Assembly (NCBI RefSeq): GCF_005233835.1
Contig: NZ_SZQA01000038.1
Span: 1-64,000 of the forward strand
Reading direction: 5' to 3'
Length of the DNA stretch: 64,000 nucleotides
Source of the DNA: Herbidospora galbida
Lineage (GTDB): Bacteria > Actinomycetota > Actinomycetes > Streptosporangiales > Streptosporangiaceae
In this document: piece after piece, positions 1-42,978 of the stretch
Position numbering within the stretch: the stretch's first letter is position 1
Layout of the letters: each line of letters begins with the position of its first letter
Notes under the pieces: model-generated
The model's input: only the letters and a program-made list of their open reading frames with translations
Told to the model about the DNA's origin: nothing
Databases searched by the model: none
Position numbers and translations under genes: made by a program

Positions 1-3000
1 CGCGGTGCGCGAAGGCCGCCCGCCGCGCCAGCAGCCTCCCGGCCGCGGCCAGGTCCTCCTCGGCGGCGCCCTCGGCGAACGCGCCGAGGCGCGCCGCGTG
101 CTCCCGGAGCGCGCTCCCGGTCTTCGCCGACAGCACCCAGACGAGCGCGGAGCCCCCGGAGCCCCCGGAGCCCGCGGAGCCCCGGGCGACCGGCTCCGCC
201 GGGCGTTCCAGGATGACGTGGGCGTTGGTGCCGCTGATGCCGAAGCTGGAGACGGCCGCCCGGAGCGGGCGGTCGCCCGGCAGGTCGACCTGTTCGGTGA
301 GGAGGCGGACCCGGCCCGCCGACCAGTCGACCTGGGCGGTGGGCTCGTCGGCGTGGAGGGTGCGCGGGAGCGTGCGGTGCTCCAGAGACTTGACCATCTT
401 GATCAGGCCGCCGACCCCGGCCGCGGCCTGGGTGTGCCCGACGTTGGACTTCAGGGAGCCGAGCCAGATCGGCCGGTCCGGATCGCGGCCCGCGCCGTAG
501 GCGGCGATGATCGATTCGGCCTCGATCGGGTCGCCGAGCCGGGTGCCGGTGCCGTGCGCCTCCACCACGTCCACGTCGGCGGCCGACAACCGGGCGTCCG
601 CGAGCGCCTGCCGGATGACGTCCCGCTGGGCCCGGCCGCTCGGCGCGGTGAGGCCGTTGCTCGCGCCGTCCTGGTTGATCGCGCCGCCCCGCAGGACGGC
701 CAGGATCGGGTGGCCGTGCCGGACCGCGTCGGACCGGCGTTCGAGCAGGAGCATGCCCACGCCCTCGCCCCAGCCGGTGCCGTCCGCCCGGTCGGAGAAC
801 GCCTTGCAGCGGCCGTCGGCGGCGAGGCCGCCCTGCCGGCTGAACTCGACGAACAGCCCGGGGTTGGACATCACGGTCGCGCCTCCGGCCAGCGCCAGCG
901 AGCACTCGCCCCGCCGCAGCGCCTGCATGGCCAGCACGATCGCGACCAGCGACGACGAGCACGCCGTGTCGACCGTGATCGCGGGGCCGCGCAGGCCCAG
1001 CGCGTAGGCGATCCGGCCGGAGGCGACACTGAGGGCGGTGCCGGTCAGCAGATGGCCGTCGGCGACGCCGGTGGGCCGGTGCAGGCGCGGCCCGTAGTCG
1101 GAGGACATCGCGCCGACGAAGACGCCGGTGGGGGTGCCGTCGAGCGTGGCCGGGTTCAGGCCGGCCCGTTCGACGGTCTCCCAGGAGACCTCCATCAGCA
1201 GCCGCTGCTGGGGGTCCATGGCGACCGCTTCGCGCGGGCTGATCCCGAAGAATCCGGCGTCGAACAGGTCCGCGCCGGTGAGGAAGCCGCCGTGGCGGGT
1301 GTCGCTGATGCCCGACAGCGCGTCGAGGTCCCAGCCCCGGTTCTCGGGGAACTCGCCGACGGCGTCGGCCCCGGCGCGCACCAGCCGCCACAGCTCCTCG
1401 GGCGTCGTCACGCCGCCGGGGTAGCGGCAGCCCATCGCGACCACCACGATCGGGTCGCCGTCGGGCCAGGTCGGCTCGACCGGGGCGGCGGCGACCGTGC
1501 CGCCGCCGGTCAGCGCGTACAGGTGGTCGGCCAGCCGGTCGGGCGTCGGGTGGTCGAACAGGAGCCCGGTGGGCAGCCGCGTCCCGATCGCGGTGCGCAG
1601 CCTGGCCCGCAGGTCCTCCGCGGCCACCGACTCGAACCCGAGGTCCTTGAACGTCCGGTGCGGCTCCACACTCGTGCCGTCCTGATGCCCGAGGACACGG
1701 GCGGCGGTGGTCAGGACCAGTTCGCGGATCTCGCGCCTCGACAGCCCGGCCGGCGCGTCGCCGCCCGTTTCCGGGTCCGCCGCCGCCGTGACCACCGGAG
1801 AGGAAGGCGGACGGGACACGATGGCGGCCGGGCCGCACTGGCGGCGCTGGAACGGGTAGGTCGGCAGGTCGATCAGCCGGGCCCGGACGTCGTGCCCGGC
1901 CGCCCAGTCGACGGGCGCCCCCCACGTGTACGCCTCGGCCAGCGACCGCGTGAACCGGTCGGGCCCGCCCTCGCCGCGCCGCAGCGACCCGACGACCGCG
2001 ACGTCCAGCTCGGCGTCCTCGGCCGTGGCCGCGACGCCCGCGCCGAGCACCGGATGGGGGCTGCACTCGACGAACAGGGCGGCGCCCAGATCGAGCGCCG
2101 ACCGGGTGGCCTGCGCGAACCTGACCGGCTGCCGCAGATTGCGGTACCAGTACCCGGCGTCGAGCCCGGAGGTGTCCATCGGCTCGCCGGTGAGGGTGGA
2201 GACGAACCGGATCGCGGAGCGCACCGGCCTGATCGGCGCCAGCGCGGCGACGACCTCGTCTCGTATGCTCTCGACCTCCGGCGAATGGGACGCGTAGTCG
2301 ACCGGCAGCAGCTTGACCCGGTGCCCGTCGGCGGCGAGCCGCTCCCCCAGTTCGGCCAGGACCGCGCGCGGCCCGGACACGACCGCCGAGCGCGGGCCGT
2401 TGAACGCGGCCACGCCCACATGCGGGGCCAGCGGGCGCACGGCCGCCTCGACGACGTCGAGCGGGGCGGCGACCGACATCATGGCGCCTCGGCCGGCGAT
2501 CCCGGCGATGGCCCGGCTGCGGAGCGCCACGACCCGCGCCCCGTCCGGGAGGCTCAGCGCCCCCGCGACGGTGGCCGCGGCGATCTCGCCCTGCGAGTGC
2601 CCGAGGACCAGGTCGGGTTCGACGCCGTTCGCCCGCCACAGCCCGGCGAGCGACACCATGACCGCCCACAGCGCCGGCTGCACCACGTCGACCCGGTCCA
2701 GGCCGGGGGCGTCCGGGGCGCCGCGCAGGACGTCGCGGACGGAGTAGCCGACGAACGGCGCGAGCGCGGCGTCGCAGGAGGCGACGAGCGCGGCGAACTC
2801 CGGCGACCCGTCGAGCAGCTCCGCGGCCATCCCCGCCCACTGCGACCCCTGGCCGGGGAAGACGAACGCCCGCTGACCGGAGATGACCGATCCGCTCACC
2901 ACCGACTCGTCGGGCCGCCCACCGGCGAACGCGTCGAGCGCCTCCCGGCGGCGCCCGCCGAGGACGACCGCCCGATGCTCGAAGTGCGCCCGGGTCCTGA

Positions 3001-41571: not shown

Positions 41572-42978
41572 TCACAACGGGATGTTGCCGTGCCGCCCAC
41601 GCCGGCAAGGGGCCCGGTTCAGGGCCTCTGCCAGGCGGAGCCGGGTGGTCTCGGGCGAGATGACCTCGTCGACGACGCCGAGCGCGAGCGCCCGTCCGAC
41701 TCCGCCGGAGACGCGCAGGTGCTCCTGGGTGAGCCGCGCCTTCAGGTCCGCGCGCTCGTCGTCGGGCACGGCGGCCAGCGCCTTGCGGTGCAGGACGCCG
41801 ACGGCCGACTCGGCCCCCATGACCGCGACCTCCGCGTCCGGCCACGCGAAGACCGCGGAGGCGCCGAGAGAGCGTGAGTTCATCGCGATGTACGCGCCGC
41901 CGTACGCCTTGCGGGTGATCAGGGTCACCCGGGGCACCACCGATTCGGCGAAGGCGTGCAGCAGCTTCGCGCCACGCCGGACGACCCCGTCCCACTCCTG
42001 GGCGATCCCGGGCAGGTACCCGGGCACGTCGACCACCACCACCAACGGCACGCCGAGCGCGTCGCACATCCGCACGAACCGGGACGCCTTCTCGGCGGAG
42101 AGCGTGTCGAGGCACCCGCCCTTGCGGATCGGATTGTTGGCCAGCACGCCCACGGAACGCCCGCCCAACCGGCCGAGGCCGACCAGGACGTTGCTCGCCC
42201 AGCGCGGCTGCAGCTCCAGGAACCCCTCGTCGACGATCGAGCGCACGAGCGGCCGGACGTCGTACGCGCGGCGCGGCGAGTCGGGCAGGATCGCGGCCAG
42301 GTCGCGGCCTTCGGCGAGCGCGCCGAGGTCGAAGTTCCCGGGCCGGGCGAACACGCCCGTGAGCCGGCGCGCCTGCTCGTACGCCTCGTCCTCACCACCC
42401 GCGACCAGGTGCGCCACCCCCGACTTGGGGCCGTGCGCCTCGGGACCCCCGAGCCCGGCCATGTCGATGCGCTCCCCGGTGACACTGCGGACGATCTCCG
42501 GGCCGGTGATGAAGATCCGCGCGTCCTCGGCCATGATCACGATGTCGGTGAGCGCGGGCCCGTACGCGGCGGCTCCCGCGGCCGGACCCAGGACGACCGA
42601 GATCTGCGGGATCACCCCGGACACCCTGGTCATCGCCGCGAACATCCGCCCCACCCCGTGCATCGACTCGACACCGTCGGCGAGGCGCGCCCCGCCCGAG
42701 TGCCACAGCCCGATCACCGGGCAGCCGAGCCGTTCGGCCGCGCCGATGGCCTCCACGACGCGCTCCGCGCCCGCTCCCCCGAGCGCGCCGCCCATCCGGG
42801 TCGCGTCGGTGCAGTACGCGACGACCACCGCGCCGTCCACCCGCCCGCACACGGCCTGAACCCCGCTGTCGTCGTCGGCGTGCAGCGGCACCGCCGAACC
42901 GGGGTCGAGCAGCCGGGCCAGCCGGACCGAAGGAGCCCGGTGATCCATCTCGACGTCGACGATCGGCATGGTGGTCAT
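41572..42978 (-). CDS. Acyl-CoA carboxylase beta subunit (carboxyltransferase, AccD/PccB-like)
   Basis: 468 residues from ATG 42978. Two crotonase-like halves carry the oxyanion regions SGGARLADG (about 95) and KAYGGAYIAM (about 355). It transfers CO2 from biotin to acetyl- or propionyl-CoA, supplying malonyl- or methylmalonyl-CoA. No alpha or epsilon subunit is adjacent. It would serve the methylmalonyl-type loading AT and the malonyl trans-AT, and may mark the right edge of the biosynthetic locus. Confidence 0.9.
   Translation of the reverse strand: MTTMPIVDVEMDHRAPSVRLARLLDPGSAVPLHADDDSGVQAVCGRVDGAVVVAYCTDATRMGGALGGAGAERVVEAIGAAERLGCPVIGLWHSGGARLADGVESMHGVGRMFAAMTRVSGVIPQISVVLGPAAGAAAYGPALTDIVIMAEDARIFITGPEIVRSVTGERIDMAGLGGPEAHGPKSGVAHLVAGGEDEAYEQARRLTGVFARPGNFDLGALAEGRDLAAILPDSPRRAYDVRPLVRSIVDEGFLELQPRWASNVLVGLGRLGGRSVGVLANNPIRKGGCLDTLSAEKASRFVRMCDALGVPLVVVVDVPGYLPGIAQEWDGVVRRGAKLLHAFAESVVPRVTLITRKAYGGAYIAMNSRSLGASAVFAWPDAEVAVMGAESAVGVLHRKALAAVPDDERADLKARLTQEHLRVSGGVGRALALGVVDEVISPETTRLRLAEALNRAPCRRGRHGNIPL

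What the first reader, a model, noticed from the sequence alone, without database searches (positions are those of the whole stretch)
1..42978. Unfamiliar composite biosynthetic locus combining KSQ type I PKS, a discrete reducing type II set, paired C-domains and its own sulfur donor
I see in one contiguous locus: a KSQ/methylmalonyl type I module, a KS-CLF fusion with KR/DH/ACP/trans-AT, an ACP-ligase-PLP decarboxylase cassette, two stand-alone C-domains, an unknown protein with a cysteine desulfurase, a GcvT-like protein and an exporter. Each family is known. I do not recall a described product using this combination. A sulfur-containing polyene or polyketide joined to a decarboxylated amino acid is a reasonable hypothesis.
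Basis: partly seen in the sequence, partly recalled or inferred. Interest (0 to 1): 0.8.

Follow-up and report, generated by a model that had tools for sequence, protein, structure and literature searches.

The report
Orphan PKS cluster with portable sulfur cassette
This stretch is the right half of a large, conserved gene cluster in Herbidospora and related soil bacteria that probably makes an unknown sulfur-containing molecule, and it carries a two-gene cysteine-sulfur unit of unknown chemistry that also turns up, as a linked pair, in quite different bacteria.

Summary
The window starts at a contig edge inside a cluster of about 79 kb that is contiguous in Acrocarpospora and Planomonospora; most of the missing left part lies on contigs C102 and C84 of the same genome. 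All 9 genomes with g08 among 100 relatives also carry the type II half, 16-17 kb away: one system. The type I genes were listed in 2015 as orphan cluster 'pks-1' (PMC4599437); that text names no desulfurase, type II PKS or sulfur. The 'unknown protein plus desulfurase' is the most interesting part. g08 (LPD16-related) lies directly beside a cysteine desulfurase in 38 of 38 assessable loci from four phyla; 18 of 19 such desulfurases in a tree group together (100/100). g08's predicted fold resembles a class I aminoacyl-tRNA synthetase core without detectable sequence homology; three cysteines are conserved. Most likely the cassette puts sulfur into a building block that a C domain joins to the polyketide. 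Product, its sulfur and g08's reaction are inferred. The amino-acid decarboxylase is lineage-specific (10 of 24 loci).

The parts
2..4528 (-). g01: type I PKS, KSQ-AT(YASH)-ACP loading module plus KS of module 1; runs off the contig
   Evidence: full-length homologs; last 111 residues of the homolog match own contig C102. Start codon not certain
4781..5356 (+). g02: small hydrophobic protein; seen only in the Herbidospora and Acrocarpospora loci looked at
   Evidence: (no Pfam family)
5365..6735 (+). g03: stand-alone condensation-domain protein (SHLIMDV)
6743..7915 (-). g04: PLP amino-acid decarboxylase (TIGR03099; best solved relative BtrK)
   Evidence: present in 10 of 24 assessable loci
7954..9417 (-). 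g05: adenylate-forming ligase (TIGR03098)
9421..9678 (-). g06: acyl carrier protein (GLDSM)
9870..11432 (+). g07: condensation-domain protein (NHLAVDM) with a C-terminal carrier-like segment without a GG[DHN]S serine motif
   Evidence: carrier-like by eye
11429..12319 (+). g08: LPD16-related protein, class I aminoacyl-tRNA-synthetase-like predicted fold, conserved C214, C219, C246; overlaps g07 by 4 bases
12330..13484 (+). g09: cysteine desulfurase of the g08-linked group
13520..14467 (-). g10: LuxR-type HTH protein, weak match
   Evidence: below cut-off
14480..17764 (-). g11-g13: ABC-2 type exporter (two membrane proteins and an ATPase)
   Evidence: Pfam on g11 and g13; g12 not tested
17746..18750 (-). 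g14: right-handed beta-helix (NosD-like) protein
18741..21254 (-). g15-g18: ACPS-like, alpha/beta hydrolase, SnoaL-like, second ACPS-like protein
   Evidence: both ACPS-like matches are below cut-off
21251..22156 (-). g19: discrete acyltransferase (trans-AT)
22156..24970 (-). g20-g22: alpha/beta hydrolase, FAD oxidoreductase, nitroreductase
24967..27207 (-). g23: KS-CLF fusion
28278..29822 (-). g25-g27: FabA/Z-like DH, ACP, ketoreductase
29957..32924 (.). g28 FAD monooxygenase (+) and g29 BTAD regulator (-); next to the cluster in Acrocarpospora and two Planomonospora (g28 also in the other Herbidospora looked at)

Best explanation
This is one hybrid biosynthetic system of about 79 kb. Shown: gene content, order, conservation, and the motifs named below. 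Inferred: a type I PKS starts from propionate (KSQ, methylmalonyl-type AT), builds a methyl-branched conjugated triene (three DH/KR modules) and then a polyol, probably with hydroxymalonyl-type units from the FkbH/ACAD/ACP/HBDH cassette. The KS-CLF/KR/DH/ACP/AT set with the GcvT-like protein makes a second short acyl unit. g05 loads an amino acid on ACP g06 and g04 decarboxylates it there. g09 takes sulfur from cysteine and hands it as a persulfide to g08, whose three conserved cysteines probably meet at the C-terminal edge of a Rossmann-like sheet; g08 inserts the sulfur into an activated amino or acyl building block. The C domain g07, whose gene overlaps g08, and g03 join building blocks and chain. 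In other phyla a D-Ala-D-Ala-ligase-type ATP-grasp enzyme often stands where the C domain stands here. Exporter g11-g13 removes the product.
For: Window at contig edge; contiguous clusters in relatives; most of the rest on own contigs. Co-occurrence of g08 and g24 in 9 of 9; g23 at 75% identity or more in 10 of 149 genomes, all cluster carriers. KSQ TGQSSS. FkbH 286.9 bits against a cut-off of 146.65, with 3HCDH, ACP and acyl-CoA dehydrogenase beside it. g04 best matches BtrK in the PDB. g07-g08-g09 consecutive in 26 of 26 Streptosporangiaceae loci; g07 and g08 overlap by 4 bases in the window. g08 beside a desulfurase in 38 of 38 assessable loci. 18 g08-linked desulfurases from three phyla are one side of a branch at 100/100, apart from 22 other homologs of eight genomes; Cys, Lys and His of the active site in 37 of 37. 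C219 and C246 of g08 in 37 of 37 and C214 in 36 of 37 rows that reach them. Fold: ArgRS Z 14.6, rmsd 3.5, 199 residues; MshC Z 11.5, 217 residues. Ddl-type ligase directly after the desulfurase in 6 of 12 non-actinobacterial loci.
Against: No product is known, so sulfur in the product is not shown. Profile comparison of g08 with ArgRS and MshC found no homology, and I see no HIGH- or KMSKS-like signature (by eye), so ATP use is uncertain. No ThiS-type sulfur carrier was noticed among the called genes (no dedicated search). The Verrucomicrobial desulfurase falls outside the group, on a very long branch (one clade of 19 not rejected, p-AU 0.258). The LPD16 match of the window protein is below cut-off (24.3 against 27). 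Meeting of the three cysteines is read from secondary structure, not from coordinates. Six of 12 non-actinobacterial loci have no Ddl-type gene next to the desulfurase, so a fixed ligase partner is not general.
Confidence: 0.6

Rival explanations
1. The desulfurase serves Fe-S or other cofactor supply for cluster enzymes, or for g08 itself as an Fe-S enzyme, and no sulfur ends up in the product.
For: Three conserved cysteines in g08 could bind a metal or an Fe-S cluster; desulfurases of this class feed Fe-S assembly (recalled).
Against: 18 g08-linked desulfurases group apart from the other homologs of eight genomes that were put in the tree, and in two of three bacillar loci the next gene after the pair is an EamA exporter, which fits a small pathway better than cofactor supply.
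Confidence: 0.2
2. g08-g09 is a self-protection device, for instance a tRNA- or target-modifying pair derived from a synthetase, not a biosynthetic step.
For: Synthetase-like predicted fold next to a sulfur donor, as in tRNA thiolation (recalled).
Against: At 296 residues there is little room for a tRNA-binding domain; no sequence link to synthetases; neighbours in other phyla include ligases, exporters, a methyltransferase, a radical SAM protein and a Cys/Met PLP enzyme, as in small pathways.
Confidence: 0.12
3. Two unrelated clusters (type I on the left, type II on the right) happen to be neighbours.
For: Each set resembles systems known alone (recalled).
Against: Order kept in Herbidospora, Acrocarpospora and Planomonospora; 9 of 9 co-occurrence.
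Confidence: 0.04

Closest known systems
Cluster pks-1 of Herbidospora (Komaki 2015, PMC4599437; outline, section 10 parts 1 and 2 of 3, and search passages read)
   Same: Same seven type I PKS genes: sizes 1806, 1801, 1578 and 1264 aa listed for H. mongoliensis equal my gene calls
   Different: The paper treats NRPS and type I PKS genes; 'cysteine desulfurase', 'type II' and 'sulfur' occur 0 times in its main text
Highly reducing type II PKS (ishigamide type)
   Same: KS-CLF, KR, DH and ACP as discrete parts; ketosynthase 6kxd among solved relatives of the KS half
   Different: KS and CLF fused; GcvT-like protein, nitroreductase and FAD enzyme added; polyene formation not shown
Cispentacin / coronafacic acid type II PKS-like enzymes (PMC10698177, text parts 1 and 2 of 8 read)
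   Same: AmcF model matches the KS half (256.9 bits)
   Different: Below the AmcF cut-off of 325
ACP-bound amino-acid decarboxylation (BtrK; VinN/VinO-type starters recalled)
   Same: Ligase, ACP and BtrK-like decarboxylase side by side
   Different: Substrate unknown; the TIGR03098/03099 models are named for an exosortase context
LPD16 domain (Pfam PF18830)
   Same: 15 of 16 g08-family members match at E 0.01 or better, best 4e-10; two Priestia plasmid homologs are annotated so
   Different: The window member is below cut-off; LPD16 covers about residues 101-193 only
Thiotetronate clusters (recalled, not tested)
   Same: Type I PKS with an embedded cysteine desulfurase
   Different: Recalled thiouridylase-like partner; here the partner is g08

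Membership tests
Type I modular PKS with KSQ loading module | Gln in place of active-site Cys of the first KS, followed by AT and ACP | tested here: met
   TGQSSS; AT and PP-binding domains
Highly reducing type II PKS | KS-CLF pair with discrete KR, DH and ACP | tested here: met
   but KS and CLF are one chain
Highly reducing type II PKS | Polyene product | not testable with these tools
   needs enzymes or metabolite
Cispentacin KS AmcF (NF058662) | Score at or above curated cut-off 325 | tested here: not met
   256.9 bits
Alkoxymalonyl-ACP cassette | FkbH, acyl-CoA dehydrogenase, ACP and 3-hydroxyacyl-CoA dehydrogenase together | tested here: met
   own contig C84
TIGR03098/TIGR03099 ligase-decarboxylase pair | Scores above curated cut-offs | tested here: met
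   651.2 against 592.35 and 566.2 against 478.45
BtrK-type ACP-bound decarboxylase | Acts on ACP-bound amino acid | not testable with these tools
   BtrK is the best solved relative, 253.5 bits
Cysteine desulfurase (IscS/NifS class) | Active-site Cys, PLP Lys and His | tested here: met
   alignment to NFS1; all three columns invariant in 37 g08-linked desulfurases
IscS, NifS or DndA equivalog | Curated score cut-offs | tested here: not met
   330, 323.9 and 320.4 bits against 548, 530.75 and 480
LPD16 (PF18830) | Gathering score 27 | tested here: inconclusive
   window 24.3; Priestia homolog 31.6
Class I aminoacyl-tRNA synthetase core | Fold | tested here: met
   predicted model only, ArgRS Z 14.6 over 199 residues
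Class I aminoacyl-tRNA synthetase core | Detectable sequence homology | tested here: not met
   hhalign against 12 ArgRS and 20 MshC: probability 0.13 and 0.69 percent

The most novel reading that the evidence does not exclude
g08 founds a new family of synthetase-fold sulfur-insertion enzymes. With its own desulfurase it makes an S-containing amino building block (for example an amino thioacid) used as a portable cassette in unrelated pathways of Actinomycetota, Bacillota and Pseudomonadota, coupled either by C domains to a polyketide or by Ddl-type ligases to an amino acid.
Probability: 0.4. Interest if true: 0.82.

Novelty: new variant of a known kind. Interest (0 to 1): 0.62.

Why it matters
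The cluster's marker genes are in all seven Herbidospora genomes searched, and at least its middle part is in five further genera, yet I know of no product. The g08-desulfurase pair would be a new way to put sulfur into natural products, with a simple genetic marker that can be mined across phyla. The short versions in bacilli (the pair and an exporter) make its chemistry directly testable in laboratory strains.

Tried and rejected
Considered and set aside: (1) coronafacic acid/cispentacin-type ring formation from the AmcF match: below cut-off, left open. (2) Aminoacyl-tRNA synthetase ancestry of g08 by sequence: hhalign gave nothing, and a PDB profile search gave only chance-level hits, best E 0.026. 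The VIA list shows no cyclodipeptide synthase among its 50 rows; that excludes nothing. (3) g08 as a defence or phage protein: no PADLOC match for the two g08 members tried; no phage record matches. (4) Other KS-CLF fusions (G056, G017, 40-41% identity) as the same system: no GcvT-like gene or g08 in the stretches fetched. (5) A published product: ten literature searches in the open-licence PMC library gave, for this cluster, only the 2015 listing; the other papers were seen as listings, except PMC10698177 (parts 1-2 of 8) and PMC10132072 (search passages only; 'fused' and 'Herbidospora' 0 times). Subscription papers are not held and MIBiG could not be searched. (6) A right border at 42978: g35 occurs without the cluster; g30 matches in 10 of 100 genomes, 9 of them cluster carriers; unresolved between 32924 and 42978. 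Rows dropped before counts: the desulfurase tree used 9 of 27 Streptosporangiaceae pair members (window included) and 30 of the 55 matches, since 25 had no locus; g08 of L082 is cut by its contig end and was left out of the linkage count; L049 and L057 were left out of the ligase count for the same reason. A first g08 alignment with members on the wrong strand was replaced. In one search a pattern seemed to miss the active-site motif in one desulfurase; an alignment showed it present.
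Full report
WHERE IT IS. The window is G000:C49:1-64000 of an 8.3-Mb genome in 116 contigs, so its left edge is a contig edge. I called 52 genes with a simple codon-bias script.

WHAT IS THERE. Every item of the finding is present. g01 is a KSQ (TGQSSS)-AT-ACP loading module followed by a normal KS. g23 is a 746-aa KS-CLF fusion; KR, DH, ACP and AT are discrete. g04-g05-g06 are decarboxylase, ligase and ACP; g04's best solved relative is BtrK, a glutamyl-ACP decarboxylase, while g05 is nearest to NRPS adenylation domains, with beta-aminoacyl-ACP synthetases further down the list. 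g03 and g07 are C-domain proteins with SHLIMDV and NHLAVDM. g07 ends in a segment that looks carrier-like by eye; in none of 26 family loci did my pattern find a GG[DHN]S serine motif there, though three of these gene calls end early or read differently (L052, L053, L055).

THE WHOLE CLUSTER. In A. corrugata and Planomonospora sp. ID82291, and as far as fetched in H. mongoliensis and H. solisilvae, the cluster is contiguous and follows the window's order. It runs from an ABC transporter (by eye) to the BTAD regulator g29; in A. corrugata this is contig positions 86.7-165.4 kb, about 79 kb (from the coordinates). The left part, read in H. mongoliensis, completes module 1 and has two more DH/KR modules, three modules with GYSLGE-type ATs, two divergently transcribed KS-KR-ACP proteins (one with an AT), and single genes; Komaki's table gives the same domain order. 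In the window's own genome these genes are on C102 and C84 at 86-98% identity to H. mongoliensis, with gaps between contigs; there the FkbH/ACAD/ACP/3HCDH cassette, a thioesterase, a PPTase and a second acyl-CoA dehydrogenase were confirmed by family search. Komaki et al. 2015 (PMC4599437; outline, section 10 parts 1 and 2 of 3 and search passages read) list the type I genes as cluster pks-1, found in all five type strains, predicted polyene with hydroxyls, product unknown, with a tree that disagrees with 16S.

ONE SYSTEM. Of 149 relatives 12 have a match to g23 at E 1e-80 or better: 10 are cluster carriers, and two (40-41% identity) lie in another kind of cluster without g08 or a GcvT-like gene in the stretches fetched. 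g08 is rare: 3 of 296 class genomes and 1 of 396 phylum genomes, all in this family.

VARIATION. The named scan gave 37 loci with a g08 relative. Of these 26 are Streptosporangiaceae (6 Herbidospora, 3 Acrocarpospora, 13 Nonomuraea, 2 Planomonospora, 1 Planobispora, 1 Microbispora); 24 reach far enough to judge the ligase region. Ten have g04 with the g05-type ligase; 14 have no g04 but a different ligase on the other strand (30-33% identity). A gene with a sugar-nucleotidyltransferase motif is in the flanks of 11 of these 14 and of none of the 10 (Pfam confirmed one). Planomonospora venezuelensis also has a glycosyltransferase, an aminotransferase, an epimerase and a C-methyltransferase. So the decarboxylated amino acid is a lineage-specific part, while g03, g07, g08 and g09 are common. 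Flanks here were 10 kb or less, so absence of sugar genes is only local, and the type II genes were seen only in the genomes of the previous paragraph.

THE SULFUR CASSETTE. In 26 of 26 family loci g07, g08 and g09 are consecutive; in the window g07 and g08 overlap by 4 bases. Outside the family the scan found g08 in two Pseudomonas strains and a third cut by its contig end, Pandoraea, Brucella, two Xenorhabdus, three genera of Bacillota and one Verrucomicrobial MAG. The desulfurase is directly downstream in 9 of 9 (L072-L080; in L074 my gene caller missed g08, placed by tblastn), directly upstream in the MAG, and L082 ends inside g08. Two Priestia plasmids add LPD16 protein, desulfurase and Ddl in a row, with comX and a DMT transporter nearby. 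Total 38 of 38 assessable. A Ddl-type ligase follows the desulfurase in 6 of the 12 assessable non-actinobacterial loci (Pfam on five, annotation for the sixth). In a tree of 41 desulfurase-like proteins, 18 of the 19 g08-linked ones are one side of a branch at 100/100; the Verrucomicrobial one falls elsewhere on a very long branch, and one clade for all 19 is not rejected (p-AU 0.258). So the pair probably has a common history across three phyla. Cys, Lys and His of the active site are invariant in all 37 g08-linked desulfurases aligned.

WHAT g08 MAY BE. No NCBIfam model matches any of 16 members. LPD16 matches 15 of 16, but the window member is under the cut-off. The AlphaFold2 model (pLDDT 88.3, pTM 0.88) matches class I synthetase cores: ArgRS Z 14.6 (rmsd 3.5, 199 residues), CysRS Z 11.9, MshC Z 11.5. 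There is no sequence-level support. Invariant in the 37 or 38 rows that reach them: H44, N109-D110-W111-Q112-Y113, C219, C246, E222, E225, E229; C214 in 36 of 37. By the secondary structure C214 and C246 follow two strands joined by one helix, and C219 starts that helix; that the three meet is my inference. A persulfide relay or a metal/Fe-S site is plausible.

HOW IT PROBABLY WORKS. See Best explanation. Shown: content, order, linkage and motifs. Inferred: propionate starter, triene-polyol chain, ACP-bound decarboxylation, sulfur transfer from g09 to g08, joining by C domains. The role of the GcvT-like protein, nitroreductase, FAD enzyme and beta-helix protein is open.

VERDICT. The cluster is a real, conserved hybrid system without a product that I could find; its type I half is in print, the rest was not found in ten searches of an open-licence library (listed in Tried and rejected). 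As a cluster it is a new variant of a known kind. The g08-g09 cassette is the part that could be new in kind.

Noticed in passing
window 47240-60419: Gene block beyond the cluster with a response regulator, a possible universal-stress protein, CBS-like and transporter-like genes: looks by eye like a stress or dormancy regulon; names recalled, no family search run.
   Followed up: no
G000 contig C85 (L171): A second FkbH-like gene (38% to the H. mongoliensis cluster's) on a contig whose edge carries another PKS gene: probably another alkoxymalonyl-using cluster in the same genome.
   Followed up: no
L072 9219-14094: Pseudomonas sp. TH31: LuxI-type autoinducer synthase, then g08 homolog, desulfurase, Ddl-type ligase and EamA exporter in a row.
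   Followed up: partly
L078, L079, L080: Pandoraea, Brucella pecoris and Pseudomonas S31 have the cassette and a Ddl-type ligase near a radical SAM protein and/or a Cys/Met-metabolism PLP enzyme: a further uncharacterised small pathway.
   Followed up: partly
L083 8766-17066: Verrucomicrobial MAG: desulfurase and distant g08 (26-28%) next to large unknown proteins; only a weak match to a MADS defence protein (E 0.00075).
   Followed up: partly
L129-L132 (G056, G017): Another fused KS-CLF type II cluster in this family, with two further KS-type proteins, two DH-like proteins, KR and AT, without GcvT or g08 in the stretch fetched.
   Followed up: partly
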